Shown here: piece by piece, positions 10,173-56,209 of the stretch
How the letters are laid out: each line of letters opens with the position of its first letter
How positions within the stretch are numbered: position 1 is the stretch's first letter
Assembly: GCA_937930535.1 (NCBI GenBank)
Contig: CALGKJ010000061.1
Coordinates: 1-64,000, forward strand
Direction: 5' to 3'
From: an uncultured Clostridia bacterium
GTDB lineage: Bacteria; Bacillota; Clostridia; Lutisporales; Lutisporaceae
DNA length: 64,000 bases
Made by a program: the position numbers and the translations under genes
Notes under the pieces: model-generated
What the model saw: the letters and a program-made list of their open reading frames with translations, nothing else
What the model was told of the DNA's origin: nothing
Databases searched by the model: none

Positions 10173-10176
10173 TTGT

Positions 10177-16864: not shown

Positions 16865-19800
16865 ATGTCAAAAGTACAAGAACTGAATAAAGCTGATGTG
16901 CAGGATATATTAGCATTAACTCCTATGCAGGAAGGGATGTTGTTTCATTATATTAATAACAATAGTGAGCAATATAGTGAACAATATACTGAACAACTAT
17001 GTTTAACGCTGATAGGAGAAACTAATATTCAAGAAATCAAGAAGGCATGGACCTTTGTTGCAGAAAACAATGAAGCATTAAGGACATGCTTTAGGTGGGA
17101 TAAGCTTAGTAAACCAGTTCAGGTGATTTTAAAGAGAGCTGATTTGGTATTTTTTGAATATGATTTAACTAAAGATTTACATAGGGAAAAGCTTGCAGAA
17201 GAAATCAAAACCAAGGATTATTATAAACAGATCGATCTTTCAACTGAAACCCTGAGAATAACAATTATTATGATAGACGATAGCACCTTTGAAATGGTAT
17301 TGACCTATCATCATATACTTTTTGATGGATGGAGTACAGGTATATTATTAAAGGAGTTTTTAGAAGCTATTAATTTGCTGAACAAAAACAGTAATCCTTT
17401 TAGTATAAAGAAAAATAGGTTTAAAGAGTTCATTAAGCTGTGTCAGGGTCAGGATAAAACTCAATATAAAAAATATTGGGTCGAATATTTTAAAGGCTTT
17501 GAAGGTAATTCGCCTTTGCCGCTAAATAGTGGCAATCAGAATACCAGTAATAAAAATGAAAAAATTGTTTATAAACTGTCAGAGGAATTATCTCAAAACA
17601 TTTATGGTTTCTGTAAGGAAGAAAAAACTACAATAGCAGCATTGTTCTATACTGCATGGGGGCTACTGCTAAATAAATACAGCAATGCAAATGATATTGT
17701 ATTCGGAACTACTGTTTCTGGAAGAAATGTTCCTTTACAAGGAATAGAAGATATGACAGGGCTTTTTATTAATACCCTTCCTTTGAGAGTTAATATAAAT
17801 GAAAGTGATAATATACTTAATATACTAAAAAAAGTAGATTATACATTAAAAACTAGAAATGATTATCAGCATACTCCTTTGGTAGATATAAAGGCATGCA
17901 GCAATATAGGCAGCAGAGATGAACTATTTGATACTATAGTAGTAATTGAGAACTATCCATTAGACAGCATATTATTCAGTGCAGATGATTCTATAAAAAT
18001 AGAAAAATACTCAATAAATGAGATAACAAACTATAAATTAACGCTTGCAATTATAGATTTCAAAGGATTAAAGCTTCAGCTATCATTTAATAATAATGAG
18101 TTTTCTAGTGAAATAGCAGGTTTAATGTTAAAACATTATGAGAATATAATAGAAATAATGATAAACGAGCCGGCTATAAAGTATGCAGAGCTTGAACTAA
18201 TTACTAAAGCAGAAAAGGAGCAAATGCTAAAAGCACTTAATAGCACAAATGCTGCATATCCTAAAAATAAAACCATACATGAACTATTTGAAGAACAGGT
18301 AGAAAAGACACCTGATAATGTGGCTGTAGTATTAGGAACTAAAGCACTTACTTATGAAGAGCTGAATAGAAGGTCAAATCAACTCGCAAGGTTATTAAGG
18401 AAAAAAGGTGCAGGGTCTGAAAATATAGTAGCAATTATGGCGGAGCGTTCTATAGAGATGATTGTAGGCATAATTGGGATACTAAAGGCAGGCAGTGCAT
18501 ACCTGCCTATTGATCCGGAATACCCACGGGAAAGAATAGAGTATATGCTGAAGGATAGTGGAGCTAACATACTTCTATCACATAACAGTCTGGGGGAAAA
18601 TATATCATACTGGGGAGAAATTATAAAATTAGATGAAGAATCTGTGTATACGGAAAGTATAAATAATCTGCAAATAGTAAATACACCAAACCATTTAGCA
18701 TATGTAATATATACTTCAGGGACAACTGGTAATCCTAAAGGAGCTATGATTGAGCATAGGAATGTTGTTAGATTAATGTTCAATGATAAACTATTATTTG
18801 ACTTTACCGAAAAAGACGTATGGACAATGTTCCACTCATATTGTTTCGATTTTTCAGTATGGGAGATGTATGGAGCATTACTGTATGGAGGTAAATTGAT
18901 TATAATACCAAAGATAATGGCACAGGATACAGCAGAGTTTCTTGAAGTATTAGATAAAGAGAAAGTGACAATACTTAACCAGACCCCATCAGCATTTTAC
19001 AGACTCAGCGAAGAAATTATGAAGACTAATAAAAACAATCTCTGTTTAAGATATATCATTTTCGGCGGAGAAGCATTAAAGCCAATAATGCTAAAAGAAT
19101 ATAATGAAATATATCCTATGGTAAAGCTTGTTAATATGTATGGAATAACTGAAACCACAGTACATGTAACATATAAAGAAATTACAAAGGATGATATAAA
19201 ACTTAATGCAAGTAATATAGGAAAGCCAATTCCGACTCTGACAACCTATGTAGTGGACAGAAATGTTAAATTATTGCCGATAGGAGTACCCGGGGAATTA
19301 TGTGTTGGAGGAGAAGGTGTAGGAAGAGGATATATAAACAGACCGGAGCTGACAGATGAAAAGTTTATAGATAATCCATTTGAGCAAAATGGTAAATTAT
19401 ATAAATCAGGTGATTTAGTAAGAATGTTGCCTAATGGTGATATGGAGTATTTAGGAAGAATAGACCATCAAGTAAAGATAAGAGGCTTTAGAATAGAGCT
19501 GGGAGAGATAGAGCACAAGCTTATTACTCATCCCTCTGTAAAAGAAGCAGTAGTAATAGCAAGAGAAGACAAGGACGGCGGCAAGTATCTGTGTGCATAC
19601 GTATCCTGTACTGGTGAAATAGCTGTTGCAACAGAACTGAGGGAGCATCTGTCCAAGGACTTACCAGGTTATATGGTGCCTTCTTACTTTATACAAATAG
19701 ATAAGCTGCCACTTACATCTAATGGGAAAGTAGACAAAAAGTCATTGCCAGAGCCTGATGGAATTATCAAAACAGGAGCAGCTTATGAAGCACCTAAGAA

Positions 19801-27717: not shown

Positions 27718-30700
27718 ATGATAAATAATACTGCAAAGGAATTGATAGTTAATACAGGGAAGTATAACGCCGAAAAGGGCTTTTGGGTAGAAAGACTTGC
27801 AGGTCTGAGTGAGGTAACGAGTTTCTCCTCTGATTATAACAGCTATGCAGACGAGAAAAATCATTATTCCAAAAATATAATTGGAGTTAATGGAATACTT
27901 TGTAAAAGAATTATAGACATAAGTAATAGCAATATCAATAATATACATTCAATACTAACTGCTTGTTTAATACTGCTGATAAAAAAGTATTCAAGCAGTG
28001 CAAGTGTAGCAGTTGGTTCTCCCGTATTTATAGAAGGCAAAGACTGTATAGATGAATTAATAAATAAATATTTTGTCATCGTAACAAATGTGGAAGATAA
28101 TATGACCTTCAAAGAACTTTTGGTCCGAACAAGAAATAGCATTAAAGACTCCATTAGCAATCAAAGCTATCCTTTTGAGCTATTAGAAAAAGATTTAGAC
28201 AATTGGAATATAGTAAAGGAAAGTCTCAGCAGCATAGTCGTATTATTTGAAAATATACATAGCTATCAATTAGTAGAAGCTTTGAACGCAAAAATGTATT
28301 TTATGTTTAGCAAGGAGGCTGACAGCATATTTCTAAGTGTTATGTATTCAAATAGTAATTATGATAATAGTACTATAGAAAGAATAACAAAACACTATAT
28401 GGAAGTGCTGAACAATGTATTATTCAACACAGAAATTAAAGTATCAGAAGTTGAATATATGACAGAAGAAGAAAAATTGCAGTTATTGGCAGAGTTTAAT
28501 GATACAGCAGCAGAATATCCAAGGGATAAGACAATACAAGAGCTGTTTGAACAGCAAGCAGAAAAGACACCTTATAATATAGCAGCCGTATTTAAAGGAC
28601 AGCATGTAACCTATAAGCAGCTAAATGAGAGGGCAAATCAATTAGCACGAACATTGAGGCTAAAAGGGATAAAAGCAGATAGCATAGTTGGCATAATGGC
28701 AGAACGTTCAATAGAGATGATAGTGGGCATAATGGGAATTCTCAAGGCAGGTGGAGCATATCTGCCAATTAGTCCTGAATATCCTGTAGATAGAATAAAG
28801 TATGTAATTGATGATAGCGGGGCAAGCCTGCTGCTTACACAAAACCATCTCCTGGGAAAAGCTTATGGGGGTATAGAGATACTGAATCTTGAGGATGACA
28901 GTATATATGATTTGAATAGTTCAAATCTTGAGCCTGTAAGCAGTTCTAAAAGCTTGGCTTATGTAATATATACGTCAGGCTCAACGGGTAAGCCTAAAGG
29001 AGCAATGATAGAGCATCATTCAGTAGTAAATAGAATAAAATGGATGCAGAAGAAATATACCATCAGCTCAGAGGATGTAATATTGCAAAAGACTCCATAT
29101 ACCTTCGATGTATCAGTATGGGAGCTGTTCTGGTGGGCTATGGAGGGAGCCAAGGTAGTATTCTTGATACCAGGGGGAGAAAAAGATCCTTCTGAAATAC
29201 TAAAGGCAATAGAGGAACACAAGATAACTACAATGCATTTTGTACCATCTATGCTTAATACCTTTCTTGAGCATCTTGAGGGGAAGGATGAGCTATATAA
29301 TCTAAAAAGCTTGAGACAGGTATTTGCCAGCGGTGAAGCCTTGACATTGCAGCAGGTTGAAAGGTTTAATAAGCTTCTTAACAGTAAGCTTGGTACAAAG
29401 CTTATTAACCTATATGGACCTACTGAGGCGACGGTTGATGTATCATATTTTGATTGTTCAACAGGGGAAAAGCTTGATACAGTACCAATCGGTAAGCCTA
29501 TAGACAACATAAAGCTATTTATAGTAAATAAATACAATCAACTATTGCCGATAGGAGTGGCAGGAGAACTGTGCATATCTGGCGTGGGATTAGGGAGAGG
29601 TTACCTTAATAGACCAGAACTAACGGCAGAGAAGTTTGTGGCAAATCCATATGAGCAAGGTGCAAAGATGTACCGTACAGGAGACTTGGCAAAATGGAGA
29701 CCTGATGGCAATATAGAGTATTTGGGAAGAATAGATTATCAGGTGAAGATACGGGGGTTTAGAATAGAGCTTGGGGAAATAGAAAACAAACTATTAGAGC
29801 ATAAAGCAATAAAGGAAGCTGCAGTTATAGCGAGAGATGATAGTAGTGGAAATAAATATTTATGTGCCTACATAACAGCAGAAAGAATACTTGTAACAGG
29901 AGAATTAAGAAAGTATCTATTTAAGGATTTGCCGGATTATATGATACCGTCATACTTCATACAAATGGATAATCTGCCGCTTACACCAAACGGAAAGCTA
30001 GATAGAAAGATACTACCAGAGCCTAATAGAAGCATTTGCACAGGAGTAGAATATGAACCGCCAAGAAATGAATTGGAAGAAAAGCTGGTGGAAATGTGGA
30101 AGGAAGTACTTGGAGCAGACAAGGTGGGGATAAATGACAGCTTCTTTGATCTTGGAGGACACTCACTAAAAGCCACAAGCTTATCAGTAAAAATACACAA
30201 GCAGCTTAATGTAGAGGTACCGTTAAAAGAAATATTTAAGGCACCAACAATAAAAGGTATATCAGAATATATAAAAGAAACAGAAGCGAGCATATATGCA
30301 GCAATAGAAAAAGCAGAAGAAAAAGAATACTACCAAGCATCTTCAGCCCAACGCAGAATATATGCATTGCAGCAGCTTGAGCCTGACAGTACAAGCTATA
30401 ACATGCCGGGAGCAGTAGAGATAGAAGGAAAACTAGATAAAGCAAAGCTGGAGGAAGCCTTTAACAAGCTGATACAAAGACATGAGAGCTTAAGAACAAG
30501 CTTTGAATTAAGAGAAGAACAAATAATACAAATTATACATAAAGAAGTAGAATTTGAAGTAGAGTGTATAAGGCTTCAAGGGAATATAGAAAAAGAAGAT
30601 GCAGAAAAAGAAATAAAGAGGCTTGTAAGAGAGTTTAATTTAAGTAAGGCACCATTATTGAGGGTGGGACTTATTGAGATACACCCGGAGAAGCATATAT

Positions 30701-43900: not shown

Positions 43901-46900
43901 TAGTGGATACGTTGAATGTGAGAAGAGATATGAGCAGAAATCCTATATTTGATGTTATGTTCATAATGCAGAATATGCATAATGGAGATATATCACTAAA
44001 GGATTTAAGAATTAAACCCTATAAGCAGGAACATAATATCTCAGTTTTTGATTTGATTTTTGAAGTAAGCGAAGCAGATGATAAGCTGGTTATCTATGTA
44101 GAATTTTGCACTAAACTATTTAAGAAAGACACTATAAAGAAAATGACAGCTCACTTTGAAAGAATAGTTGAAGTAATAAGCAAAGATAAGCAAATAAAGC
44201 TGAAGGATATAGATATAACTTCCCAGGCAGAAAAGAAACAGATATTAGAAAGCTTCAACGATACTTATGCACATTACCCGCTTAATAAAACTGTTCATGA
44301 GTTGTTTGAAGAACAGGTGGAGAAAACACCAGATAATGTGGCAGTTATATTTGAGGATAATAAGCTGACATATAAAGAGCTTAATCAAAAGTCAAACCAG
44401 CTTGCAAGGGAGCTAAGAAACAGAGGGGTAAGAGCTGACAGCATAGTAGGAATAATGGTAGAGCGATCACTGGAAATGGTAGTAGGAATAATGGGGATAT
44501 TGAAGGCAGGAGGAGCATATCTGCCAATAAGTCCAGATTATCCACCGGATAGGATAGAGTATATCCTTGAGGATAGCGGAGCAAAGCTGCTGCTTACACA
44601 AACGAAGCTGGCAGACAGAGTCAACATAAAAGATTTAATTGATTTGGAGGAAGAAAACATATATAAAGCAGCTGTTGAGAACCTGGATAACATATCAACC
44701 TCAACAAATCTCGCATATGTTATATATACATCAGGTTCTACCGGCAAACCTAAAGGAACAATGATAGAGCATCACTCCTTGATAAACAGGCTGAAATGGA
44801 TGCAAAAGCAATATCCATTGTGCCAGAAGGATGTGATTTTACAGAAGACTACATATACTTTCGATGTATCAGTATGGGAATTGATATGGTGGTCCTTAGA
44901 AGGTGCCGCTGTATGTATGCTTAGCCAAGGAGCAGAAAAAGACCCTCAAGAGATTGTGAAAGCAATAGAAAAGCATAACATAACAGTAATGCATTTTGTA
45001 CCTTCTATGTTAAATATGTTTCTTGAGCATTTAAAGATAAATGGAGAACTAAGCAGATTAAAAAGCCTGAGACAAGTGTTTGCAAGCGGAGAAGCGCTGA
45101 CACTGCACCAGGTTGAAATGTTCAATAGATTAATAAACAAAAACTGCGGCACTTTACTTGCAAACCTATATGGTCCTACAGAGGCAGCAATAGATGTATC
45201 ATATTTCGACTGTACCATAGATAAAGAGCTGGATAAGGTTCCGATCGGCAAACCAATAGATAATATAAAACTATATATTGTTGATAAAAATAATAAATTA
45301 CAGCCTGTAGGAGTATCGGGAGAGCTCTGCATAGCAGGAGTAGGACTAGCAAGAGGATATCTTAACAGACCTGAGCTGACAGCAGAGAAGTTTGTCAATA
45401 ATCCCTTTGAAGAGGGAACAAGAATGTACAAAACAGGAGATCTTGCTAAATGGCTGCCTGATGGAAACATAGAGTTCCTGGGCAGAATAGATGACCAGGT
45501 AAAAATACGCGGATTTAGAATAGAGCTTGGGGAAGTAGAAAATGCACTTAATAAATGCCCATACATAAAGGATTCGGTAATTATCCATAGGAAAGATAAT
45601 TTTGGAGTTGGGTATTTAGCAGCTTATATTGCTGTAGATAAAAAAAATATGGAACTATATAACGGAAAGAAAAGATATAAATTGCCTAACAATATGTCCA
45701 TATTACATTTAAATAGAAATGAAACAGATTTTATGTATAAGGAAATATTTGAGGACCAAAGCTATTTTCAATATGGAATAGAAATAAAGGACAATGATTG
45801 TGTTTTTGATATAGGTGCAAATATAGGAATGTTTACATTATATGTAAATGGTGTTTGTGAAAACGCAAACATATATGCCTTTGAACCTATACCCAAAGTT
45901 TTTGAGGTTTTGGACTGTAATTGTCAATTGTATACAAATGGAACTAAAATATTTAACTATGGTATTTCAGATACAAATAAAGAAACCACATTTACATACT
46001 ATCCCAAGGCTACTATAATGTCTGGCTGTTATGGCAACACAGCAAAAGATAAGGAATTGTTTGAAAATTCTATGACTGATTTAAATGATTTGAAAATGGA
46101 AGAAAAGGAAAGTGTAGAGAAATACAAATCAGAGCTGATTCAGGAAAGATTTCAAAAGGAAGACTTTAAATGCCAGTTAAAAACTCTGTCAGAAGTAATA
46201 AAGGAGAATAATATAGAAAAAATAGACTTACTAAAGATAGATGTTGAGAAAAGTGAAATGGATGTTCTTATGGGAATACATAATCATGATTGGGCGAAAA
46301 TAAAGCAAATAGTTATTGAAGTGCACGAAATAAACGGTGAAATAGATAAAATCACGGAACTGCTCAATCAAAATGGGTATGTGGTATTTATAGGAGTAGA
46401 GGAAGGATTAGAAAATAGCGGATTATACACTGTATATGCAAAAAGTAGAGAACTGGCAAAGGAAGCAGCAGCAAAGGATGTATGGAATAAGAGCGAAGTT
46501 AGTATTATTCAAGATAATGTATTGACTACAGAGAAAGTAAGAAACTATTTACTCAATATATTGCCAGATTACATGATACCGTCATATTTTATCCAAATGG
46601 ACAAGCTGCCGCTGACTGCAAATGGAAAGGTAGACAGAAAGGCACTGCCAGAGCCGGATGGAAGTCTGATAACAGGAGCAGAGTTTGAGGAAACAAGGAA
46701 TGAAACAGAAGCCAAGCTTGTAGAAATATGGAGGGAGGTTCTGGGAGTAGATAAAATAGGAATAAACGATAACTTCTTTGAACTAGGAGGACACTCACTA
46801 AAAGCTATAAGCTTGGCAGCAAAGATACACAAGATCTTTGATGTGGAAGTTCCTTTAAGTGAGATATTCAAGCTTTTGACGGTAAAGGGAATAGCAGAAT

Positions 46901-48303
46901 ATATCAGTAGTGTGGAAAAGAATATGTACACAACAATAAATGCGGCTGAGGAAAAGGAGTATTATGAAGCTTCGTCAGCCCAAAAAAGAATGTATACCTT
47001 GCAGCAAATTGATTTGAATAGTACAAGTTATAATATGCCGGGTGTACTAGTGATAGAAGGTATGCTGGACATAGAAAGATTGAGGGAAGCTTTTAAAAGG
47101 TTAATACAAAGACATGAAGCTTTTAGAACTGGCTTTGAATTAGGACAAGAGGGAATAATACAAAAAATATACAAGGAAGTGGAATTCAAAGTAGAATATG
47201 TTGATTTACAATCTATAGAAGAAAAAGAAATTGAAAAAATAGTCAGCCGCTTTATAAGAAGTTTTGACTTGAATAAGGCACCGCTGCTAAGAGTGGGATT
47301 AGTTAATGTATCTAAAGATATTACATTGGAAAAGTATATTTTGATGTACGACATGCACCATATAATATCAGATGGTATATCCATGGAAATATTAGTCAAG
47401 GAGTTTGTTGAATTATATTCGGGAAAAGAACTTGCTCCTCTAAGGATACAATACAAGGATTTTGCGGAATGGCAGAATAAGTTATTCAGGAGTACAAGGA
47501 TAAAGAAGCAGGAGGAGTATTGGTTGAGTCAGTTCGCAGGAGACATACCGGTACTAAACCTTCCGACAGATTATTCTAGACCAGCTATGCAAAGCTTTGA
47601 GGGGGACAGGATAAGCTTTGAGCTGGAGGAAGAATTGACAGAAAAGTTAAGGAACATAGCAAGAGAGACAGGAAGTACCATGTACATGGTGATGTTGGCA
47701 GCCTTTAATATTTTATTATCAAAATACAGCGGACAGGAAGATATAGTAGTAGGGACTCCAATAGCGGGAAGACCACATGCGGATTTGGAAAACATAATAG
47801 GTATATTTGTAAATACCCTTGCCATGAGGAACTATCCAAGGGGAGAGAAAACTGCAAGAGAATTTATAGAGGAAGTAAAAAACAATGCTCTAAAGGCTTA
47901 TGATAATCAGGATTATCAATTTGAAGAGCTTGTAGAAAAACTAAATATACTAAGAGATATGAGCAGGAATCCGCTATTTGACATTATGTTTGCAATGCAG
48001 AATATAACAATGACAGAAGCCAGTATAGATGGATTAAAGGTAAGCGGGTATAAAACAAATACAAAAACGACCAAGTTTGACTTAATGATAGAAATATTTG
48101 AAGGTACTAGCACGATAGTATTAAACCTCTCCTATCTGACAAAGCTATTTAACAAAAGCTCAGCATATAGGATACTGGAAAATTATAAGGATTTGCTATG
48201 GGAAATAGTTAAAAATACGGATGCCAAATTGTCAACGTTCAATGTAAAGACAAATTTTAAGAAGATAAATGTAAAAAAAGAAGAGGTTGATTTTGACTTT
48301 TAA
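37975..48303 (+). CDS. NRPS 3: A(?)-T-C-A(Dab)-T-C-A(Ser, FkbM-MT inserted)-T-C
   Basis: Synthetase of 3442 residues. It starts directly with A7 (about 1-520), whose usual FDxxxWE segment is replaced by CHDPFLRDI; pocket DPRHFALLA is unassigned. T7 Ser559. C8 (613-1040), HHIIADG. A8 (1059-1560) pocket DIWEMTADD is one change from the 2,4-diaminobutyrate code DIWELTADD. T8 Ser1605. C9 (1659-2085). A9 (2102-2900) pocket DVWHFSLID reads Ser and is interrupted at about 2557-2825 by an FkbM-type methyltransferase. T9 Ser2941. C10 (2995-3442) is complete and ends KKEEVDFDF. A GGGGTTGA site precedes ATG 37975, 21 bases after NRPS2. No Dab biosynthesis gene lies in the window. Confidence 0.95.
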   Translation: MRTIQYALTESFSSYKDNIAIEYGADFITYSQLDEKSSYIANDIINSGIAAGSNIGIYIENKIELIAAVIGVIKARCVFVPLSSEYPDKRTKHMIESADVHYIIMDKLNLTSYGELLNDVDGIMQTIVIDDSYYNGEKHSLERFVQLEYSPEDSIYIYFTSGTTGKPKGILGRNISLLQFIKWEIEQFQIDSSYRISQLTSQCHDPFLRDIFVPLCTGAAICIPQNSKGLLEHGNIINWLESTRINLIHCTPSLFEIVYSGNINDKMFSSLKYVFLAGERVIPAKLKKWYDTFGDRVQLVNLYGPTETTLAKLFYPIQKEDCNKQIIPIGQPIKGARVIILNDKDENCKVGQVGEIYIRTPYRTHGYYNNAQLTKEKFIQNPFSNDLNDLIYKTGDLGKLLPDGNIEFIGRVDRQVKIRGYRVELEEIEKVLMEHQDIESAVVLEKQSGSTENFLCAYYVEKNTGNNLVYTGETIREYLRFILPSYMIPIHYIKLDEMPLNNNRKIDYKLLQDIPISCERNIIKPRNEVEEKIAAIWREVLNIDQIGIDEGFFNIGGHSLNAMRVLTKLYKEFNINISLSIMFQNPTIEMLAKHIKDFTKTRFKSIDKVENKEYYELSSAQKRIYVLNNLEEANISYNITNAAAINGDIDISRFELTLRQLIDRHEALRTSFALVDGVPMQKIHDSVDFSIEHFSADEDEITDVIKGFIRPFKLNQPPLMRTALIKVKPDSYVMAVDMHHIIADGTSMGILIQEFVKLYNGEQLKDLAIQYKEFAAWQNNLFESNALAEQENYWKELFKEGAPVLNLPVDFERPIKQSFEGDTIDFNIPVSITNDLKQIANDRNVTLNMLLFSVFSILLSKYSKQEKLIIGSLIEGRNHADLENIIGVFPNFLPIKVEIEKRRTFSEVLDYVKKQLLCAYENQDYPFEKIVEIADIGVDYSRNPLFDTMLIFHNQIDPKTNGGIDNLQFHEYDYNKKIANLDIKVDVYLDYSGRLSCKLQYSTALFKTDTINRMKKHFLNIIDQVIKELDIPVYEIELTTAEEKNHILNEFNDTKVFKDNNKKLYELFEEHAEKSSNSIAVVYKDKSFTYKEINIKANKLARVLIEKGIGEDDFAGILMERSELMLVSVIAVWKAGGAYIPIDTAYPNDRISDIMSDSGAKLLIVNSIDAEQLDISEDKIIDLSKIDDYIRDKAETNIDKKTDMSSLAYAIYTSGSTGKPKGAMVEHCGMMNHMQAKIDIMKLDSNSVISQNASHCFDISVWQFFCALALGGKTVIIPNETVLNSNQFISVIENQQVDILEVVPSYLLELFEILRENKECFNRLKYLMITGEELKKKLVETWFSIYPHIPIINAYGPTEASDDITHYVMKGIPEGEKISIGKPIQNLKITIVTEEMKLCPIGIYGELCVEGIGVGRGYINRKELTEKHFCQSPFTPGERMYKTGDLARWLPDGNIEFLGRMDSQVKVRGFRIELGEIEIKIQGYKDVNEAAVIVRKDNKGENCLCAYIKGEKTLRMPELKEYLAKKLPYYMIPALFIEIDEMPLNANGKIDRKALLYIDGVTHTGTEYIEPQNELEKKLADMFCNILGLNQVGINDNFFELGGHSLKAMNLAAKINNEFNVEFPLGELFKSPTVGEMSIYIQGLDRNAFSSIKQIQEKEYYSLSSSQKRMYMLQKLDVNSIGYNMPGVVEIEGRLDTERLEQAFKALVERHDGLRTSFDFREEDPIQKIHKIAELKIQYIKAEENQVEGIVKEFVRPFDLSKPPLLRVGLIELHPKRHILIYDMHHIISDGVSKAILLKEFADLYEGRELPELKIQYKDYAAWQDELFKSDRIKKQEEYWLEVLKEEIPILNLPTDYSRPAIQSFEGDRISFELDRKKTGDLVRIAKDTGSTMYMVLLSAFNILLSKYSGQEDIVIGSPIAGRSHADLENVIGIFINTLVMRNHPDRNISFSEFLQRVKENSLKAYENQDYQFEELVDTLNVRRDMSRNPIFDVMFIMQNMHNGDISLKDLRIKPYKQEHNISVFDLIFEVSEADDKLVIYVEFCTKLFKKDTIKKMTAHFERIVEVISKDKQIKLKDIDITSQAEKKQILESFNDTYAHYPLNKTVHELFEEQVEKTPDNVAVIFEDNKLTYKELNQKSNQLARELRNRGVRADSIVGIMVERSLEMVVGIMGILKAGGAYLPISPDYPPDRIEYILEDSGAKLLLTQTKLADRVNIKDLIDLEEENIYKAAVENLDNISTSTNLAYVIYTSGSTGKPKGTMIEHHSLINRLKWMQKQYPLCQKDVILQKTTYTFDVSVWELIWWSLEGAAVCMLSQGAEKDPQEIVKAIEKHNITVMHFVPSMLNMFLEHLKINGELSRLKSLRQVFASGEALTLHQVEMFNRLINKNCGTLLANLYGPTEAAIDVSYFDCTIDKELDKVPIGKPIDNIKLYIVDKNNKLQPVGVSGELCIAGVGLARGYLNRPELTAEKFVNNPFEEGTRMYKTGDLAKWLPDGNIEFLGRIDDQVKIRGFRIELGEVENALNKCPYIKDSVIIHRKDNFGVGYLAAYIAVDKKNMELYNGKKRYKLPNNMSILHLNRNETDFMYKEIFEDQSYFQYGIEIKDNDCVFDIGANIGMFTLYVNGVCENANIYAFEPIPKVFEVLDCNCQLYTNGTKIFNYGISDTNKETTFTYYPKATIMSGCYGNTAKDKELFENSMTDLNDLKMEEKESVEKYKSELIQERFQKEDFKCQLKTLSEVIKENNIEKIDLLKIDVEKSEMDVLMGIHNHDWAKIKQIVIEVHEINGEIDKITELLNQNGYVVFIGVEEGLENSGLYTVYAKSRELAKEAAAKDVWNKSEVSIIQDNVLTTEKVRNYLLNILPDYMIPSYFIQMDKLPLTANGKVDRKALPEPDGSLITGAEFEETRNETEAKLVEIWREVLGVDKIGINDNFFELGGHSLKAISLAAKIHKIFDVEVPLSEIFKLLTVKGIAEYISSVEKNMYTTINAAEEKEYYEASSAQKRMYTLQQIDLNSTSYNMPGVLVIEGMLDIERLREAFKRLIQRHEAFRTGFELGQEGIIQKIYKEVEFKVEYVDLQSIEEKEIEKIVSRFIRSFDLNKAPLLRVGLVNVSKDITLEKYILMYDMHHIISDGISMEILVKEFVELYSGKELAPLRIQYKDFAEWQNKLFRSTRIKKQEEYWLSQFAGDIPVLNLPTDYSRPAMQSFEGDRISFELEEELTEKLRNIARETGSTMYMVMLAAFNILLSKYSGQEDIVVGTPIAGRPHADLENIIGIFVNTLAMRNYPRGEKTAREFIEEVKNNALKAYDNQDYQFEELVEKLNILRDMSRNPLFDIMFAMQNITMTEASIDGLKVSGYKTNTKTTKFDLMIEIFEGTSTIVLNLSYLTKLFNKSSAYRILENYKDLLWEIVKNTDAKLSTFNVKTNFKKINVKKEEVDFDF
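45647..46450 (+). other. FkbM-family methyltransferase inserted in Ser adenylation domain A9
   Basis: Between A8 motif IRGFRIELGEVE and the final A-subdomain (VRNYLLNILPDYMIPSYF) lie about 270 extra residues with FkbM signatures: VFDIGANIGMFTLYVN (SAM motif I), AFEPIPKVFEVL and LLKIDVEKSEMDVLMGI (usual LKID.EG.E). FkbM enzymes are O-methyltransferases, so O-methylation of the tethered Ser side chain is the likely outcome; the kutzneride enzyme KtzH is the precedent I recall for an O-methyltransferase inside a Ser A domain. Confidence 0.88.
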
Positions 48304-48376: not shown

Positions 48377-48418
48377 ATGACAAACAAATATACTAGGTCA
48401 GGAAGGTGTAAACACATA

Positions 48419-51400
48419 ATGGATAGACTGGAAAGACAAGCCTTGATATATAGTGAAGATACTAAGATAGAGAAAGAATTTTGGGAAAACATACTTGGTG
48501 GGATAGAAGAAATAAGCTGCTTCCCCTATGACAATGCAAAAACTTCACTAATAAATTGCTTAGAGAGAAGTCAGATTAACTTTAATCTGCCAGACAGTGT
48601 AAGTGAAAAAATAATAAAAATAGCAAAAGCCTCAGACGAGAATATTTACTGTATATTGTTAACAGCAGTAAAAATTTTGTTATACAAATATACTGGAAAC
48701 AGAGATTCAATAACAGGTTCAACAGTTTACAGGCAGGAAGCTGAAGATGATTTAATAAATAAAATTCTGATACTTAGAAACTCGATAGATGTGAACATGT
48801 CGTTTAAAGAATTCCTAATAAATACAAGAAAAATTTTTAATGAAGCTTTATCTAATCAAAATATACCATTAGATGTACTGATTGAAAACACAAAAGCACT
48901 TAGTGTCAATAATATATCAGATTTCTTTAAAACAGTAGTACTTTTAAAAAACATACATGAAACAGATTATCTAAAAGGTTTAAGTCCAAATATCGTATTT
49001 GTTTTTAAAAAGGATTATGAGTCAATAAGCTGTGATATAAGCTATAATAAGCAATTTTACTCAGAAAGCACAATTCAAAGAATAACTAAGCATTTAATTA
49101 GTCTGCTTGATATGATGCTGGATAATCTTGATATTAAGCTTGAAGACATACAAATACTTACAAAAGAAGAATGGCAGCAACTGCTGGTTTCCTTTAATAA
49201 TACAGCAGCAGAGTATCCCAAAAATAAAACAATACATGATATATTCAGAGAGCAAGTACAAAGAACACCTGACAATATAGCAGTAACATTGGAGGACAAG
49301 AAGTTAACATACAAGGAGTTAAATGAAAGGGCAAATAGGCTAGCAAGAACTTTAAAGAAACTGGATATAAATAACAATGATATAATAGGTATATTATTAG
49401 ACCGTTCAATAGAAATGATAGTGTCAATCTTAGCAGTATTAAAGGCTGGGGGCGCTTATCTTCCAATAGACCCGGAGTATCCGCAGGATAGAATAAAATA
49501 TACATTAGAGGATAGTAAAACAAAAATAGTACTGACAAATAAGAAATTTGAAGCTTTAGTGAAGTTTACCGGACAAGTATTATATGTAGAAGATGAAAAT
49601 GTATATGATGAAATTATGACAGAACTGCCGGATAAAAGCAGTCCTAATGATCTTGCATATGTAATATATACATCAGGGACAACAGGCAAGCCAAAGGGTG
49701 CGATGATAGAGCACAAGAATGTAGTCAGATTAATGTTCAATAACAAGATACAGTTTGACTTTACCAGCGAAGATGTATGGACAATGTTCCACTCTTTTTG
49801 TTTCGATTTCTCGGTATGGGAGATGTACGGTGCATTATTTTACGGAGGAAAGCTGGTAATAGTGCCAAAGTTAACAGCCCGTCAGCCAAGGAAGTATTTG
49901 GAGCTGCTGAAGAAGGAAAAAGTAACGATTTTGAACCAAACACCAACAGCCTTTTATAACCTTTCAAATGAAGAGGTAAGCATAAAGGAAAAGGAACTTT
50001 CCATAAGATATGTAATATTCGGCGGAGAAGCATTAAAGCCAATTATGCTAAAAAGCTGGAGGGAGAAATATCCCGGCACAAAGCTGATAAACATGTATGG
50101 AATAACAGAGACCACAGTACATGTAACCTATAAGGAAATAACAGAGCATGAAATAGAAAATAATATAAGTAATATAGGCAAGCCAATACCTACACTGACG
50201 GCATATGTAATGGATAGAGATATGAAGCTGCTTCCCATAGGGGCTGCCGGAGAGCTATGTGTAGGTGGAGACGGTGTATGCAGAGGATATCTAAACAGAC
50301 CAGAGCTTACAGCAGAAAAATTTATTAATAATCCATACAAAGAAGGAGAACGCTTGTATAAATCCGGTGACTTGGTAAGAATGCTTCCAACTGGGGAAAT
50401 GGAATATCTAGGACGTATAGACCATCAAGTAAAGATAAGAGGACATAGAATAGAACTGGGTGAAATAGAAAATAAGCTTATAAGGCATGGGGCTATAAAG
50501 GAAGCGGTAGTATCAACTAAAGATGATAGCAGCGGAAACAAGTATTTATGTGCATATATAGCAGGGACAAGAGAATTAACAATAGGAGAGCTGAGGGAGT
50601 ATTTGTCCAAGGATTTACCAGATTATATGATACCATCATACTTCATGCAGATGGATAAGCTGCCATTGACATCAAATGGGAAAATAGACAGAAAGGCATT
50701 ACCAGAGCCTGATAAAAGTGTCAGTACAGGTGCAGAATACGAAGCTCCGAGAAATGAAATAGAAGAAAAGCTGTCAGAGATATGGAGAGAAGTGTTGGGG
50801 GCAGATACAATGGGAATAAATGACAGCTTTTTTATGCTGGGAGGAGACTCTATAAAAGCAATACAAGTATGTTCGAGACTCCAAAGATATAAGATGAAGC
50901 TAGAGGTAAAGCATATTCTGCAATATCCATCAATAAAGGAAGTATCAAATTATGTAACTTACAATACGAATATTGCAGAGCAAGGTATAATAACAGAAGA
51001 AATAGAATTGACGCCAATACAGAAATGGTTTTTTGATAATGATTATATAGACAAGCATCACTGGAATCAGGCAGTAATGCTGTACAGCAAGGAAAGCTTT
51101 GATGAAGAAGCACTGAATAAAGCTTTTGAGAAGATAACAGAGCACCATGATATACTAAGAGCGGTTTATAAAATACAAGAAAATAAAGTGATACAAATAA
51201 ATAGAGGTATTGAAGGACAGTTGTATGAGCTTAAAGTATTTGACCTGAAAAATGAAGAAAATTATGGGGATATAATACCTACCGAAGCAAACAAAATACA
51301 AAGCAGCATGGATCTAAGAAATGGACCACTGGTAAAGCTGGGACTATTCAAGACAAGTGAAGGCGATCACCTTCTGATAACAATACATCATCTGGTTGTG

Positions 51401-54400
51401 GACGGTGTATCATGGAGAATAATATTTGAAGATTTATCCAAAGCATACAGTCAGGCAGTAAAGGGAGAAGAAATAGTACTTCAGGATAAGACAGATTCCT
51501 TCAAACTATGGGGTGAAGAACTAAAAAAGTATGCAAATAGCAAAAAACAATTAAAGGAGCTTGATTATTGGAAACGCATAGAAGAAACAGAAGTATTGCC
51601 GCTTCCTAAAGATAATATAGTGAATATTGGAAAGACAAAGGATACAGCAGCAGAATCAATAGAGTTATCAGAAGCAGAAACAGAAACTCTGCTGAAAAAA
51701 GTAAACAGTGCATACAATACTGAAATAAACGATATTTTGCTTACATCACTAGGAATGACAATAAACAAGTGGACCGGATGTGATAAAGTACTGATAAATC
51801 TTGAGGGGCATGGCAGAGAGCTGGAAATAAAGGGCATAGATATAACTAGAACAGTTGGCTGGTTTACATCCCAATTCCCAGTAATACTGGACATGCATGG
51901 CACAGAAGGTCTTTCGCATTCAGTAGTAAAGACAAAAGAAACATTGAGACAAATACCTAATAAGGGAATAGGCTATGGAATATTAAAATACATAACATCA
52001 CAGGAAAATAAAAAAGGTTTAAGCTTTGAAAGAAGTTCAGAGATATGCTTTAACTATCTGGGACAGTTTGATAAGGATATAAATACAGAAGTATTTCAGG
52101 TATCACATATATCAGCAGGAAACAGCATAAGCTTGGAGGCACAAAGGAACTACAGTCTGGATGTAAGCGGTATGATAATAAACAAAAAGCTGTACATGAG
52201 CTTTAAATATGATAGGAATGAGTATAACAAAACTACAATAGAAGAGTTGTCAAAGAACTATGCTAAAAATCTGATAGAGCTGATTAAGCACTGTGCAGAT
52301 AAAGAATATACAGAGCTTACACCAAGTGATACAACTGGAAAAAGAATAGCATTAGAAGAGTTTAATTTAATAAAGAAAAGATTAGCTGAAATAGGAATAA
52401 TAGAGCCTCAAATATCCGATATATATACGCTGTCGCCAATGCAGGAAGGAATGTTGTTTTATACACTCCTTGATAACAAGTCAAATGTATACTTTGAACA
52501 AATGGTACTAAATATAGAAGGTAATATAGATATAAAGCTGTTCGAGGAAAGCTTTAATAAAGTAATAAACAAATATGATGTACTAAGAACTGTATTTGTA
52601 CACGAAGGGGTAAAGAAACCTGTACAGGTAATTCTAAAAGATATAAAAACAGCAATACATTATGAGGACATAATGGCACTTGAAAAAGAAAAGAAAGAAG
52701 AATATGTAGAAGAATATAAACAAAAAGATAAAGAAAAGGGCTTTAATCTAAAAATGGATATTCCAATAAGAGTATCTATCTTAAAGCTAGATCATGATAA
52801 ATATGCAGTTATATGGAGCTTCCACCATATAATTATGGATGGATGGTGTTTAAGCCTCGTAATAAAAGACTTTTTTGACAGCTATATAAGTATAAAAGAA
52901 AGAAAAAAAATAGATATAGAAAAAGTAGAAGCATATGGCAGGTATATATCCTGGCTGGAAGAACAGGACAAAGAAGAAGCAATAGCTTATTGGAAAAGAT
53001 ATCTTGAAGGCTTTGAACATAAATCATCAGTGCCAGTAATAAAAACATCAAAAAATGGTGAAGAATACCAAAATAGAGAAAAAGTAATGGTGCTTAATAA
53101 AGATATAAGTAAGGGCTTGGTTAAGCTTGCTCAAGGAGCAGAGGTCACATTGAGTACAGTTATTCAGACTGTATGGGGAGTTATACTGCAAAGATACAAC
53201 AACACAGAAGATGTTGTGTTTGGGGCAGTAGTATCGGGAAGACCTTCTGAAGTAGCTGGGATAGAGAATATGGTGGGGCTATTTATTAATACTGTACCTG
53301 TAAGGTTCAGGGTAAGCGGACTGGAAAGTATGGAAGAAGCAGCAAAGAAGCTTCAGAGGCAGGCAGCCGAATCAAGTAAATACGAATATATATCCTTGGC
53401 GGAAGTTCAATTAATAAGCGAATTAAAGAATGAGCTTATAGACAATATTTTAGTATTTGAAAATTATCCTATGGAAAAAGAAATAGAAAATAGTACGCAG
53501 GAGAATAGACTAGGTTTTGAAATAAAGGCTGTGGAGGTATTTGAACAGACAAATTATGGAATTAACATAATAGTATCACCTGGGGAAGAAGTAACAATAA
53601 GAATAAGGTACAATGGTGCAGTATATGAAGATGCACAGGTATTGAACTTGCTAAGCCATATAAATCAAGTAATAAATACAGTAGTAAGTAGGCCGAGCAT
53701 AATGCTGCGGGATATACAGATACTTTCAGAGGAGGAAAAATACCAGATGCTTGTATCGTTCAATAATACAGCAGTTGAATATCCTAAGCATAAAACTATT
53801 CAAGAGCTGTTTGAAGAGCAAGCAGAAACAATACCTGATAACATAGCATTAGTATATGGAGAGCAGCGGCTAACCTATAAAGAACTAAACGAAAAGTCAA
53901 ATCAATTGGCAAGAGTGCTGAAGATGAAAGGAATAAAAGCTGAAGATGTAGCAGCACTAATGGTAGAGCGTTCTCCGGAAATGGTAATAGGAATTCTAGG
54001 AGTACTTAAAGCTGGAGCAGCTTATTTGCCCATAGACCCGGAATATCCTAAAGATAGAATAGAATTTATGTTACAGGATAGCAACGCAAAACTACTTCTG
54101 ACACAGGCTGAGTTTGTAAATAGCTCTAATGAAAAACTAGAAAAAATAGGATTAAAAGATATAAAAATATATACAGGGGATAGCAGCAATCCATGGGTAT
54201 TAAATAAAGCGGAAGATCTTTGCTGTATTATGTATACATCTGGCAGTACAGGAAAACCAAAGGGTGTAATGATTGAACATAGGAACGTAGTCAGATTGGT
54301 TAAAAGTACAAATTATATAGAATTCAGAAGTGATGATAGAATATTGCAAACGGGAGCAATAGTATTCGATGCATGTACCTTTGAAATATGGGGAGCGTTA

Positions 54401-56209
54401 CTGAATGGTCTTGAATTACATCTTACGGATGCAAGTAATATATTAGATGCAAATAAGCTTGGAAAAATCATAGAACGAAATAAAATAACAATACTATGGC
54501 TGACTTCTTCTCTATTTAACAGACTAGTTCAGCAAAGGGAAGATATATTTAACGGGCTTAGGTATCTTTTAGTAGGCGGCGATGTATTATCACCAAAGCA
54601 TATAAATACAATAAAAGATAAATATAAAGATATAAAAATTGTTAATGGTTATGGACCTACAGAAAATACTACTTTTTCAACCTGTTATGTTATAGATAAA
54701 GAACACAGTAATAATATACCTATAGGAAAACCTATCAGTAACTCAACAGCATACATAATAGACAAAACCAATAACCTACAGCCAATAGGAATAAAAGGTG
54801 AACTATGTGTCGGCGGAGATGGATTAGCTAGAGGATATCTCAACAGACCAGAGTTAACCACGGAGAAGTTTACAGATAACCCATTTATACCTGAAACAAA
54901 AATGTACCGTACAGGAGACCTTGCAAGATGGCTTCCTGATGGCAGCATAGAATTTCTAGGACGTATAGATCATCAGGTAAAGATAAGAGGCTTTAGGATA
55001 GAACTAGGGGAAATAGAGAATAAGCTTCTAGAACATGATCTGGTGAAAGAAGCGGTAGTAGCTATAAAAGAAGGTAAAAATAATGACAAATACTTGTGTG
55101 CTTATATAATAGGCAAAGGAGAATTTAACGCAGCAGAACTAAGAGAATATCTTTCTAAAGATTTGCCAGGATATATGATACCATCGTACTTTTTAAAACT
55201 AGAGAAACTGCCGCTTACACCCAATGGAAAGGTAGACCGAAAGTCGCTGCCGGAGCCGGATGGAGACATAACAACAGGAGTGGAATATGAAGCCCCAGGA
55301 AATGAAATTGAAGAAAAACTGGCAGATATATGGAAAGAAGTATTAAACATACAAAGAATAGGAATAAATGATAACTTTTTTGAGGTGGGAGGACATTCTC
55401 TGAATCTGATATCTCTTGCAAATAAAATTAACCAGGTGTTTAAGGTTAATGTAAAGATGACAAATCTATTTAAGCACCTTACTATAAAAAATATGTCCAG
55501 TTTAATAATTAAAGCATTTATAAGTGAGGATGAACAGTTGGCAGCACTTTTAAATGAGGAAAAGGACAATAAAATCTTTTGCTTTCCACCTATTCTTGGG
55601 TACGGTATAGCATATAAAGAGGTAGCAGAAAAGCTATCTAACTATGCGGTATATTCATTTAATTTCACTAATAAGCAAAACATAGTAGAAGAATATACTG
55701 ACTATATAGTAAAAACTCAGTCTGAGGGTGAATATATTTTGTTTGGGTATTCAATAGGTGGAAACATGGCATTTGAAGTTGCTAAAGAATTAGAAAAAAG
55801 AAACAAAGTAGTTAATAAGTTAATTATTATGGATTCTGCTGTTGTGACTGATGAAGTAAAGAAAAGATTCAATGAAAATGAGAATCAACGAATAGATGAA
55901 TTAAAGGAAAAGATTGAAGAATACAAAATATACGATGTTCATAGTCATGAAATATTAGAAAAGACAATTTCTTACGGAGCATATTTTAGAGGTATTGTAC
56001 ATCAAGGGACTATAAATGCAGATATTCATTATATACAATCAAGCATATTAGATAATAGTGAAATACGAAAATGGGATTTATATACGTCAGGCAAATGTGT
56101 ATACTACAATGGGTATGGGGCTCATATTGATATGTTATCAGGGGAGAATTATTCAAGAAATATTGAAATAATTGAGTCCATACTAAGAAATACTAGCTTA
56201 GAATTATAA
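48419..56209 (+). CDS. NRPS 4: half-C-A(Thr)-T-E-C-A(Val)-T-TE (termination)
   Basis: Synthetase of about 2596 residues from ATG 48419, which has GGAAGGTG ten bases upstream; ATG 48377 has no site and overlaps the hairpin. Residues about 15-245 are a C-lobe-only condensation remnant as in NRPS2. A10 (268-765) pocket DFWNIGMVH reads Thr. T10 has LGGDSIKAI (Ser811), the form found before epimerases. The E domain (863-1290) has HHLVVDGVSW and EGHGRE, giving D-Thr. C11 (1337-1770) has YTLSPMQEGMLF and HHIIMDGW, a D-accepting type. A11 (1790-2290) pocket DAFWLGGTF reads Val (DAFWIGGTF). T11 Ser2327. A type I thioesterase (2383-2596) has GYSIGG (Ser2445), Asp2472 and His2569 and should release or cyclise the chain. 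Confidence 0.95.
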   Translation: MDRLERQALIYSEDTKIEKEFWENILGGIEEISCFPYDNAKTSLINCLERSQINFNLPDSVSEKIIKIAKASDENIYCILLTAVKILLYKYTGNRDSITGSTVYRQEAEDDLINKILILRNSIDVNMSFKEFLINTRKIFNEALSNQNIPLDVLIENTKALSVNNISDFFKTVVLLKNIHETDYLKGLSPNIVFVFKKDYESISCDISYNKQFYSESTIQRITKHLISLLDMMLDNLDIKLEDIQILTKEEWQQLLVSFNNTAAEYPKNKTIHDIFREQVQRTPDNIAVTLEDKKLTYKELNERANRLARTLKKLDINNNDIIGILLDRSIEMIVSILAVLKAGGAYLPIDPEYPQDRIKYTLEDSKTKIVLTNKKFEALVKFTGQVLYVEDENVYDEIMTELPDKSSPNDLAYVIYTSGTTGKPKGAMIEHKNVVRLMFNNKIQFDFTSEDVWTMFHSFCFDFSVWEMYGALFYGGKLVIVPKLTARQPRKYLELLKKEKVTILNQTPTAFYNLSNEEVSIKEKELSIRYVIFGGEALKPIMLKSWREKYPGTKLINMYGITETTVHVTYKEITEHEIENNISNIGKPIPTLTAYVMDRDMKLLPIGAAGELCVGGDGVCRGYLNRPELTAEKFINNPYKEGERLYKSGDLVRMLPTGEMEYLGRIDHQVKIRGHRIELGEIENKLIRHGAIKEAVVSTKDDSSGNKYLCAYIAGTRELTIGELREYLSKDLPDYMIPSYFMQMDKLPLTSNGKIDRKALPEPDKSVSTGAEYEAPRNEIEEKLSEIWREVLGADTMGINDSFFMLGGDSIKAIQVCSRLQRYKMKLEVKHILQYPSIKEVSNYVTYNTNIAEQGIITEEIELTPIQKWFFDNDYIDKHHWNQAVMLYSKESFDEEALNKAFEKITEHHDILRAVYKIQENKVIQINRGIEGQLYELKVFDLKNEENYGDIIPTEANKIQSSMDLRNGPLVKLGLFKTSEGDHLLITIHHLVVDGVSWRIIFEDLSKAYSQAVKGEEIVLQDKTDSFKLWGEELKKYANSKKQLKELDYWKRIEETEVLPLPKDNIVNIGKTKDTAAESIELSEAETETLLKKVNSAYNTEINDILLTSLGMTINKWTGCDKVLINLEGHGRELEIKGIDITRTVGWFTSQFPVILDMHGTEGLSHSVVKTKETLRQIPNKGIGYGILKYITSQENKKGLSFERSSEICFNYLGQFDKDINTEVFQVSHISAGNSISLEAQRNYSLDVSGMIINKKLYMSFKYDRNEYNKTTIEELSKNYAKNLIELIKHCADKEYTELTPSDTTGKRIALEEFNLIKKRLAEIGIIEPQISDIYTLSPMQEGMLFYTLLDNKSNVYFEQMVLNIEGNIDIKLFEESFNKVINKYDVLRTVFVHEGVKKPVQVILKDIKTAIHYEDIMALEKEKKEEYVEEYKQKDKEKGFNLKMDIPIRVSILKLDHDKYAVIWSFHHIIMDGWCLSLVIKDFFDSYISIKERKKIDIEKVEAYGRYISWLEEQDKEEAIAYWKRYLEGFEHKSSVPVIKTSKNGEEYQNREKVMVLNKDISKGLVKLAQGAEVTLSTVIQTVWGVILQRYNNTEDVVFGAVVSGRPSEVAGIENMVGLFINTVPVRFRVSGLESMEEAAKKLQRQAAESSKYEYISLAEVQLISELKNELIDNILVFENYPMEKEIENSTQENRLGFEIKAVEVFEQTNYGINIIVSPGEEVTIRIRYNGAVYEDAQVLNLLSHINQVINTVVSRPSIMLRDIQILSEEEKYQMLVSFNNTAVEYPKHKTIQELFEEQAETIPDNIALVYGEQRLTYKELNEKSNQLARVLKMKGIKAEDVAALMVERSPEMVIGILGVLKAGAAYLPIDPEYPKDRIEFMLQDSNAKLLLTQAEFVNSSNEKLEKIGLKDIKIYTGDSSNPWVLNKAEDLCCIMYTSGSTGKPKGVMIEHRNVVRLVKSTNYIEFRSDDRILQTGAIVFDACTFEIWGALLNGLELHLTDASNILDANKLGKIIERNKITILWLTSSLFNRLVQQREDIFNGLRYLLVGGDVLSPKHINTIKDKYKDIKIVNGYGPTENTTFSTCYVIDKEHSNNIPIGKPISNSTAYIIDKTNNLQPIGIKGELCVGGDGLARGYLNRPELTTEKFTDNPFIPETKMYRTGDLARWLPDGSIEFLGRIDHQVKIRGFRIELGEIENKLLEHDLVKEAVVAIKEGKNNDKYLCAYIIGKGEFNAAELREYLSKDLPGYMIPSYFLKLEKLPLTPNGKVDRKSLPEPDGDITTGVEYEAPGNEIEEKLADIWKEVLNIQRIGINDNFFEVGGHSLNLISLANKINQVFKVNVKMTNLFKHLTIKNMSSLIIKAFISEDEQLAALLNEEKDNKIFCFPPILGYGIAYKEVAEKLSNYAVYSFNFTNKQNIVEEYTDYIVKTQSEGEYILFGYSIGGNMAFEVAKELEKRNKVVNKLIIMDSAVVTDEVKKRFNENENQRIDELKEKIEEYKIYDVHSHEILEKTISYGAYFRGIVHQGTINADIHYIQSSILDNSEIRKWDLYTSGKCVYYNGYGAHIDMLSGENYSRNIEIIESILRNTSLEL
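50612..50714 (+). repeat. 103-base identical repeat, copy 2 (copy 1 at 33061-33163)
   Basis: Identical to the end of A5 in NRPS 2 over 103 bases, covering the DYMIPSYFMQMDKLPLTSNG region through the A10 motif. Confidence 0.9.

What the first reader, a model, noticed from the sequence alone, without database searches (positions are those of the whole stretch)
16865..56209. Eleven-module NRPS line for an apparently undescribed Orn/Dab/O-methyl-Ser peptide
Seen: 11 A, 11 T, one E and one TE domain over four collinear genes. Pocket residues read against GrsA give Thr, ?, Orn, Ser, ?, Gly, ?, Dab, Ser(+FkbM), D-Thr, Val. Inference: an undecapeptide with two cationic residues, released or cyclised by the TE (side-chain OH of Thr or Ser, or Orn/Dab amine as nucleophile). 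I do not know a peptide with this order. No MbtH, PPTase, regulator or Dab synthesis gene is in the window.
Basis: partly seen in the sequence, partly recalled or inferred. Interest (0 to 1): 0.85.

Follow-up and report, generated by a model that had tools for sequence, protein, structure and literature searches.

The report
NRPS line with half-condensation subunit junctions
Four genes in an uncultured anaerobe-like bacterium encode an 11-step enzyme assembly line for an apparently undescribed cationic peptide, and the way its proteins seem to join (a half-sized condensation domain facing a short "DFNF" protein tail) recurs in many bacteria, including what looks like the line for the well-known antifungal iturin, yet I found no description of it.

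Summary
In detail: four collinear NRPS genes with 11 A, 11 T, one E and one TE. Pockets read Thr-His-Orn-Ser-(small)-Gly-(2-aminoadipate-like)-Dab-Ser[FkbM]-D-Thr-Val. Two things change the interpretation. (1) The proteins are cut between C and A. N1, N2 and N3 each end in a complete C domain; N2 and N4 begin with only the C-terminal lobe of one. Half-Cs form one clade (58 of 59; the exception is a contig-edge artefact) across Bacillota and Acidobacteriota/Aminicenantes. The preceding subunit ends in [DE]-[IV]-[DE]-F-x-F-COOH (33 of 34 junctions fit the loose form). A genome whose module order matches iturin A has the same junctions. I read this as an undescribed C/A-boundary docking pair. AlphaFold did not place the tail. 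(2) N1's first C is DCL-type with a COM acceptor, so N1 is probably not the start. The cognate initiator (acyl-ligase-T-C-A[Asn]-T-E) sits in its own operon with an exporter and a membrane peptidase of ClbP-like layout. In G006 and G892 the same operon lies directly upstream of a line with this acceptor. The product is therefore probably an acyl-D-Asn-primed prodrug peptide. MIBiG could not be searched.

The parts
16865..27685 (+). N1 (3606 aa): C-A(Thr)-T-C-A(His)-T-C-A(Orn)-T-C
16886..18180 (+). First C domain of N1 (HHILFDG) with COM-acceptor N-terminus (KADVQDILALTPMQEGMLFHY); DCL-type clade shared by ten line-opening or stand-alone C domains of the genome
27659..27682 (+). C-terminal tail of N1, ...SETDFNI-COOH, facing the half-C of N2
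27718..37953 (+). N2 (3411 aa): halfC-A(Ser)-T-C-A(small residue?)-T-C-A(Gly)-T-C
27718..28464 (+). Half-C domain of N2: C-terminal lobe only, no HHxxxDG, start at Met1
37927..37950 (+). C-terminal tail of N2, ...NDDLDYEF-COOH, facing a subunit that starts directly with A
37975..48303 (+). N3 (3442 aa): A(2-aminoadipate-like)-T-C-A(Dab)-T-C-A(Ser, FkbM-interrupted)-T-C
45808..46383 (+). FkbM methyltransferase (PF05050) inserted between A8 and A10 motifs of the Ser A domain; expected O-methylation of Ser
48277..48300 (+). C-terminal tail of N3, ...KKEEVDFDF-COOH, facing the half-C of N4
48377..56209 (+). N4 (2610 aa): halfC-A(Thr)-T-E-C-A(Val)-T-TE (true start may be Met at 48419)
48419..49159 (+). 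Half-C domain of N4
50996..52342 (+). Epimerization domain of N4 (HHLVVDG, RTVGW); Pfam Condensation hit
52415..53752 (+). C domain after E (DCL-type, SPMQEGML)
55571..56206 (+). Thioesterase (PF00975)
56448..57332 (+). RlmA/MyrA-like 23S rRNA guanine-N1 methyltransferase homologue (below NCBIfam cut-off); possible self-resistance, untested
57541..59388 (+). ABC exporter half-transporter 1 (MsbA-like)
59388..61151 (+). ABC exporter half-transporter 2

Best explanation
This is a four-protein, 11-module type I NRPS. Shown from sequence: domain order, pocket codes, and that subunits are cut between C and A, with a half-C lobe at the start of N2 and N4. Inferred: (a) at N1|N2 and N3|N4 the acidic-aromatic C-terminal tail (DFxF/DFNI) of the upstream subunit docks on the downstream half-C. 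The half-C sits on its A domain where a C lobe normally sits, and the complete catalytic C is delivered in trans by the upstream protein. (b) N2|N3 uses a related tail but a bare A domain. (c) N1 accepts, through its COM-acceptor/DCL domain, an acyl-D-Asn starter from a separate FAAL-T-C-A(Asn)-T-E subunit (contig C159), or from a second C-A(Asn)-T-E subunit (C112). Both are shared with other lines of this genome. (d) The full chain acyl-D-Asn-Thr-His-Orn-Ser-X-Gly-Aad?-Dab-Ser(OMe)-D-Thr-Val is released by the TE and exported by the two ABC proteins, and the acyl-D-Asn cap is removed by the PF00144 membrane peptidase encoded next to the initiator. Rough confidence: (a) as a dedicated docking pair 0.6; (c) initiation in trans 0.6; (d) cap removal 0.4; residues Thr, Orn, Ser, Gly, Dab, Ser, Thr, Val 0.85 each.
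For: Half-C: 15 of 15 in the own genome are monophyletic (support 0.97), and 58 of 59 across genomes (support 1.0; the one outside is cut at a contig edge). The floor-loop residues G, R, G and F, 92-100% conserved in full C domains, are absent in all half-Cs. In the own genome 11 half-C subunits follow a C-ending subunit and all 11 tails match the motif, against 1 of 8 C|A junctions without half-C (Fisher p 1.6e-4). Outside the own genome 22 of 23 listed junctions match the loose motif, background 44/427. A genome with module order Asn-Tyr-Asn-Gln-Pro-Asn-Ser, i.e. iturin A (order from PMC11751314), has C(tail IQLNF)|half-C and C(tail IELNF)|half-C, so this junction lies in a line known to make its product. 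The half-C model has blocks of pLDDT ~95 and matches C lobes; half-C+A superposes on the Txo1 C-A didomain, TM 0.77, rmsd 3.2 A. Initiation: the best PDB hits of N1-C1 are post-E C domains (SrfA-C, BacC, TycB, PvdL C3; McyB-C1 also follows an E, from memory). C1 groups with the C that follows, in cis, the orthologous initiator in G882 (clade support 0.89). COM pairs in cis agree in G882, G921, G803, G006, G892 and G655. C159 operon: TEII-initiator-MFS-PF00144 peptidase with signal peptide and 3 TM, then a terminator (z -5.9). The same operon precedes a COM-acceptor line in G006 and G892.
Against: AlphaFold2 on stop-read-through tail+half-C (C125) and tail+half-C+A (L115) left the tail at pLDDT <50, so docking is not predicted; single-chain, shallow alignments, weak test. 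Two half-C subunits (C46, C207) follow a TE-ending gene, so half-C can occur without a visible partner; thermoactinoamide ThdA has a truncated C in its starter module (PMC7253712). N2|N3 has the tail without a half-C. The C159 contig ends about 70 bp after the peptidase gene, so a line in cis beyond the terminator cannot be excluded. The peptidase assignment rests on fold family and topology; ClbP itself was not among the PDB hits listed. Sequence is from a MAG of 252 contigs.
Confidence: 0.58

Rival explanations
1. The half-C domains are vestiges of gene fission within a C-A pair; subunits find each other by other means and the tails are unrelated.
For: AlphaFold gives no tail docking; half-C also occurs at line starts (C46, C207) and as C* in thermoactinoamide; N2|N3 works, presumably, without one.
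Against: One clade across phyla rather than many independent remnants; half-C-specific conserved residues; near-perfect coupling to the C-terminal tail motif in genomes not used to define it.
Confidence: 0.25
2. N1's first C is a starter C that acylates Thr directly from acyl-CoA, giving an N-acyl undecapeptide from N1-N4 alone.
For: It opens the line after non-NRPS genes, as do several clade members; the clade is separate from the internal post-E C domains of the same genome.
Against: Closest solved domains are post-E C domains; the RzmA starter C is barely hit (26 bits); it carries a COM acceptor of the type that in six other loci follows an acyl-loading E subunit; the genome's own true starter-C-like domain (C112 initiator, YPLTHPQKRIWYIENIYPGTS) looks different.
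Confidence: 0.25
3. The line is a siderophore synthetase (Orn, His, Ser, Dab, Thr are common in siderophores).
For: Polar composition with Orn, His and an acidic residue.
Against: No Orn N-hydroxylase, beta-hydroxylase or iron-uptake gene in the window; ABC exporters only.
Confidence: 0.08

Closest known systems
Iturin/mycosubtilin synthetase (ItuA-ItuB-ItuC)
   Same: In a genome whose module order equals iturin A, both subunit junctions are C-ending subunit with [LF]xF tail followed by a half-C-A subunit; TE-released peptide.
   Different: Different residues, 7 amino acids, beta-amino fatty acid starter in cis, no FkbM module.
COM domains (E-COM-D / COM-A-C) of Bacillus NRPS
   Same: N1 carries a COM-acceptor-like N-terminus on a DCL domain; initiator C159 carries a COM-D-like tail (FTPSDFETLDIDQEDLDSLFL).
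   Different: COM works at E/C junctions (PMC9113145, PMC12402864); N1|N2, N2|N3 and N3|N4 are C/A junctions and have no COM.
beta-hairpin/SLiM docking of NRPS and PKS-NRPS
   Same: Short acidic C-terminal linear motif proposed to bind an N-terminal globular element.
   Different: Acceptor here is a C-domain lobe next to an A domain, not a beta-hairpin next to a C domain.
Acyl-D-Asn prodrug systems (xenocoumacin XcnA/XcnG, colibactin ClbN/ClbP, zwittermicin; from memory)
   Same: Asn-loading module ending in E, next to a PF00144 peptidase with signal peptide and three TM helices.
   Different: Initiator and peptidase lie apart from this line and seem shared by several lines; Bacillota; link to the window inferred.
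Thermoactinoamide ThdA starter module C* (PMC7253712)
   Same: N-terminal truncated C domain before A.
   Different: There described as probably inactive, in a starter module, with no partner tail proposed; clade membership not tested.
Interrupted A domains with methyltransferase
   Same: Methyltransferase nested between A8 and A10 motifs.
   Different: FkbM family (mostly O-methylating in natural-product clusters, one N-methylating RiPP enzyme, PMC9259500); product not known here.

Membership tests
Type I modular NRPS | Repeated C-A-T modules with intact core motifs | tested here: met
Type I modular NRPS | Terminal release domain | tested here: met
   PF00975 at end of N4
COM-type subunit docking | E-ending donor and COM-acceptor C at the junction | tested here: not met
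   N1|N2, N2|N3, N3|N4 are C|half-C or C|A
COM-type subunit docking (N1 entrance) | COM-acceptor-like N-terminus on a DCL-type C domain | tested here: met
   the physical partner is inferred
Half-C/DFxF junction (as in iturin line) | Downstream subunit starts with a half-C of the single clade | tested here: met
   N2 and N4; N3 lacks it
Half-C/DFxF junction (as in iturin line) | Upstream subunit ends in full C plus [DE][FYLW]x[FIL]-COOH | tested here: met
   N1 DFNI, N2 DYEF, N3 DFDF
Half-C/DFxF junction (as in iturin line) | Tail binds half-C | tested here: inconclusive
   AlphaFold2 tail pLDDT <50 in two read-through models
Acyl-D-Asn prodrug NRPS | Acyl-loading, Asn-specific, E-ending initiation subunit | tested here: inconclusive
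   present in the genome (C159, C112); use by this line inferred from COM type
Acyl-D-Asn prodrug NRPS | Membrane PF00144 peptidase that removes acyl-D-Asn | tested here: inconclusive
   family and topology met; activity not testable here
Starter-C lipopeptide NRPS | First C groups with starter C domains | tested here: not met
   PDB comparison places it with post-E C domains; no large reference set of starter C domains was available
Known peptide cluster (MIBiG/Norine) | Same module order in a described cluster | not testable with these tools
   no MIBiG or Norine access; FkbM module has no relative in 290 other genomes of the class at E<=1e-20

The most novel reading that the evidence does not exclude
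Two undescribed assembly rules operate together. First, a dedicated C/A-boundary docking pair (C-terminal [DE]-[IV]-[DE]-F-x-F tail plus N-terminal half-C lobe on the A domain) joins NRPS subunits across Bacillota and Acidobacteriota, including iturin synthetase. Second, in this genome one or two acyl-D-Asn initiation operons (initiator, exporter, activating peptidase) feed about ten separate elongation lines in trans through one COM code.
Probability: 0.4. Interest if true: 0.85.

Novelty: new variant of a known kind. Interest (0 to 1): 0.68.

Why it matters
Reviewed NRPS docking types act at T/C or E/C junctions. A natural, widespread C/A-boundary junction would add a docking class and a natural cut point at the C-A border for NRPS engineering, and it can be tested in the tractable iturin/mycosubtilin system. 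A shared acyl-D-Asn primer would mean that a line's product cannot be read from its own cluster alone, which affects genome mining in NRPS-rich anaerobes (this MAG has about 114 C-type domains in 4.7 Mb). The predicted peptide (Orn, Dab, His, O-methyl-Ser) matches no order I know.

Tried and rejected
A scan of genome contigs with the half-C alignment failed for lack of conserved stretches; a single protein was used. FkbM-region DNA search in the family found only repeats of A/T domains elsewhere. AlphaFold on the C125 and L115 read-through junctions did not place the tail. A first pooled half-C tree looked non-monophyletic only because of one locus cut at a contig edge. Code-table searches for His, Dab and A5 signatures found no paper. 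I first read N1's C as a starter C because it opens the operon, then dropped that on PDB hits, COM motifs and loci in cis. Siderophore reading dropped: no hydroxylase or uptake genes in the window. The organism could not be named; a Bacillota (Firmicutes) placement is my inference from gene content. The automatic pocket script misread positions 330/331 for A8; the hand alignment was kept.

Full report
Observation. The window is the first 64 kb of a 115,670-bp contig (C61) of a 4.69-Mb MAG (252 contigs, 97% complete). Four NRPS genes run on the + strand. Domains by Pfam and window-built HMMs: N1 C-A-T-C-A-T-C-A-T-C; N2 halfC-A-T-C-A-T-C-A-T-C; N3 A-T-C-A-T-C-A(FkbM)-T-C; N4 halfC-A-T-E-C-A-T-TE. 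No further Condensation-family hit lies on the contig.

Residues. Hand alignment to GrsA motifs gives DFWNIGMVHK Thr, DSELTAEVCK His (memory), DVGEIGSIDK Orn, DVWHFSLVDK Ser, DVSNMALIYK small residue (uncertain), DILQIGAIWK Gly, DPRHFALLAK, DIWEMTADDK Dab, DVWHFSLIDK Ser, DFWNIGMVHK Thr, DAFWLGGTFK Val. A7 is one residue from DPRHLALLAK, reported for 2-aminoadipate (PMC12283262, PMC3547906). The Dab call gains support from a Dab aminotransferase gene (TIGR00709, 489 bits) inside another cluster of this genome whose A domain reads DIWELTADDK. FkbM sits inside the A9 domain; FkbM enzymes of natural-product clusters are mostly O-methyltransferases, with one N-methylating RiPP enzyme (PMC9259500), so O-methyl-Ser is likely, not proven. 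Only one other FkbM-interrupted A domain exists in the genome (C14, 46% identity) and none was found in 290 other genomes of the class.

Junctions. N1, N2 and N3 end in complete C domains (HHIISDG). N2 and N4 begin with about 245 aa that match only the C-terminal lobe of a C domain (HMM positions ~180-435). This is genome-wide: among subunits with readable ends 27 end in C, and neighbouring junctions are 11 C|half-C and 8 C|A, against 5 E|C. Half-Cs of this genome are one clade in a tree with 120 full C/E lobes. Adding other genomes, 58 of 59 half-Cs form a pure clade with support 1.0; the outsider is an ORF cut by a contig start. They occur in Acidobacteriota/Aminicenantes MAGs, in other Bacillota classes and in the window's own class. 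Several floor-loop residues nearly invariant in full C domains are absent, so these lobes look non-catalytic.

Tails. The subunit before a half-C ends in an acidic-aromatic motif. In the own genome 11 of 11 C|half-C tails match [DE][FYLW]x[FILM]-COOH, against 1 of 8 C|A tails (Fisher p 1.6e-4). The motif was seen first in this genome, so other genomes are the test: 22 of 23 junctions match the loose form, against 44 of 427 ORF ends as background; related genomes are not independent draws. Over 34 junctions the last residue is F in 32, position -3 is F/L/W in 33, and -4 is D/E in 28. N2|N3 is an exception: tail DLDYEF, but N3 starts directly with A; C84 looks similar.

Link to a known line. One hit genome (G318) has a cluster with order Asn | Tyr-Asn-Gln-Pro | Asn-Ser with three E domains at the iturin positions and proteins of 4001, 5365 and 2632 aa. 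This equals iturin A (L-Asn-D-Tyr-D-Asn-L-Gln-L-Pro-D-Asn-L-Ser, PMC11751314). If right, the junction works in a line whose product is known. In the papers I could search, a truncated N-terminal C is mentioned once for a starter module as 'probably inactive' (thermoactinoamide), and the docking review lists COM and PAX docking domains at E/C and PCP/C junctions. I found no description of the half-C/tail pair; subscription papers, including the original mycosubtilin work, are not held.

Structure. The half-C folds confidently and resembles C-domain lobes. A half-C+A model superposes as one unit on the Txo1 C-A didomain (TM 0.77, rmsd 3.2 A), so the half-C occupies the seat of a normal C lobe and the upstream full C must be held elsewhere. 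In both models the read-through tail stayed disordered (pLDDT <50). Docking by the tail is therefore an inference from co-occurrence, not from structure.

Entrance. N1 starts with a C domain whose best solved relatives are C domains that follow E domains, and with a COM-acceptor-like N-terminus. In the full C-domain tree it groups with C domains of nine other contigs of this genome, most opening a line, and with the C that in G882 directly follows an initiator ending in E. The orthologous initiator here is on contig C159: acyl-ligase-T-C-A(DLTKIGEVGK, Asn)-T-E with tail FTPSDFETLDIDQEDLDSLFL. It is followed by an MFS exporter and a PF00144 protein with signal peptide and three C-terminal TM helices, then a strong hairpin with a U-run (z -5.9); an Sfp-type PPTase fragment and a type II thioesterase precede it. 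In G006 and G892 the same operon runs straight into a line with the same acceptor type; G882, G921, G803 and G655 show the COM pair in cis. A second E-ending C-A(Asn)-T-E subunit with a related tail lies on C112. I conclude that N1-N4 is probably primed in trans with acyl-D-Asn and that the cap is later removed, as in known acyl-D-Asn prodrugs (from memory). The C159 contig ends soon after the terminator, so a line in cis cannot be excluded.

Verdict. The NRPS is real and looks like a new member of a known kind. The junction architecture is an apparently undescribed variant of subunit docking with wide distribution. The trans-initiation hub is a second, less certain novelty. Neither has been shown experimentally.

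Noticed in passing
L034 (G000:C159), 74-10659, minus strand: Operon of Sfp-type PPTase (cut), type II thioesterase, acyl-D-Asn initiator NRPS, MFS exporter and ClbP-layout PF00144 peptidase, ending in a terminator, with no elongation NRPS on the contig.
   Followed up: partly
L182 (G000:C112:28001-41215), 1604-6136 +: Second orphan Asn initiator (C-A-T-E, 1511 aa, starter-C-like first domain) followed by two membrane proteins that look like ABC half-transporters (not tested against families).
   Followed up: partly
G000 contigs C105, C50, C74, C85, C196: Third junction class: C-ending subunits with basic tails (KKKKKFKKS, RVLKRN, KLRRS). Where the downstream A domain's code was read (C105, C50, C74, C85) it has an unusual DA[VMI]HVGLYNK pocket.
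   Followed up: no
L013 (G000:C14), 11739-15269 +: One-module halfC-A-FkbM-T protein, code DLKNFGTICK; FkbM 46% identical to that of the window.
   Followed up: no
L020 (G000:C105), 14801-29590 +: FkbH-like, acyltransferase-like, hydroxyacyl- and acyl-CoA-dehydrogenase-like genes and a lone Ser A domain before a COM-acceptor line; resembles a zwittermicin-type extender-unit cassette (read by eye).
   Followed up: no
G000 whole genome: About 114 Condensation-family domains in a 4.7-Mb MAG, an unusually NRPS-rich genome; no MbtH gene.
   Followed up: partly
window 56448-57332: RlmA/MyrA-like 23S rRNA methyltransferase directly after the NRPS genes; could be self-resistance if the peptide hits the ribosome.
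   Followed up: no
window 13686-15155: A 171-aa ORF without Pfam match and an integrase-fragment ORF just upstream of the cluster, hinting at past mobility.
   Followed up: no
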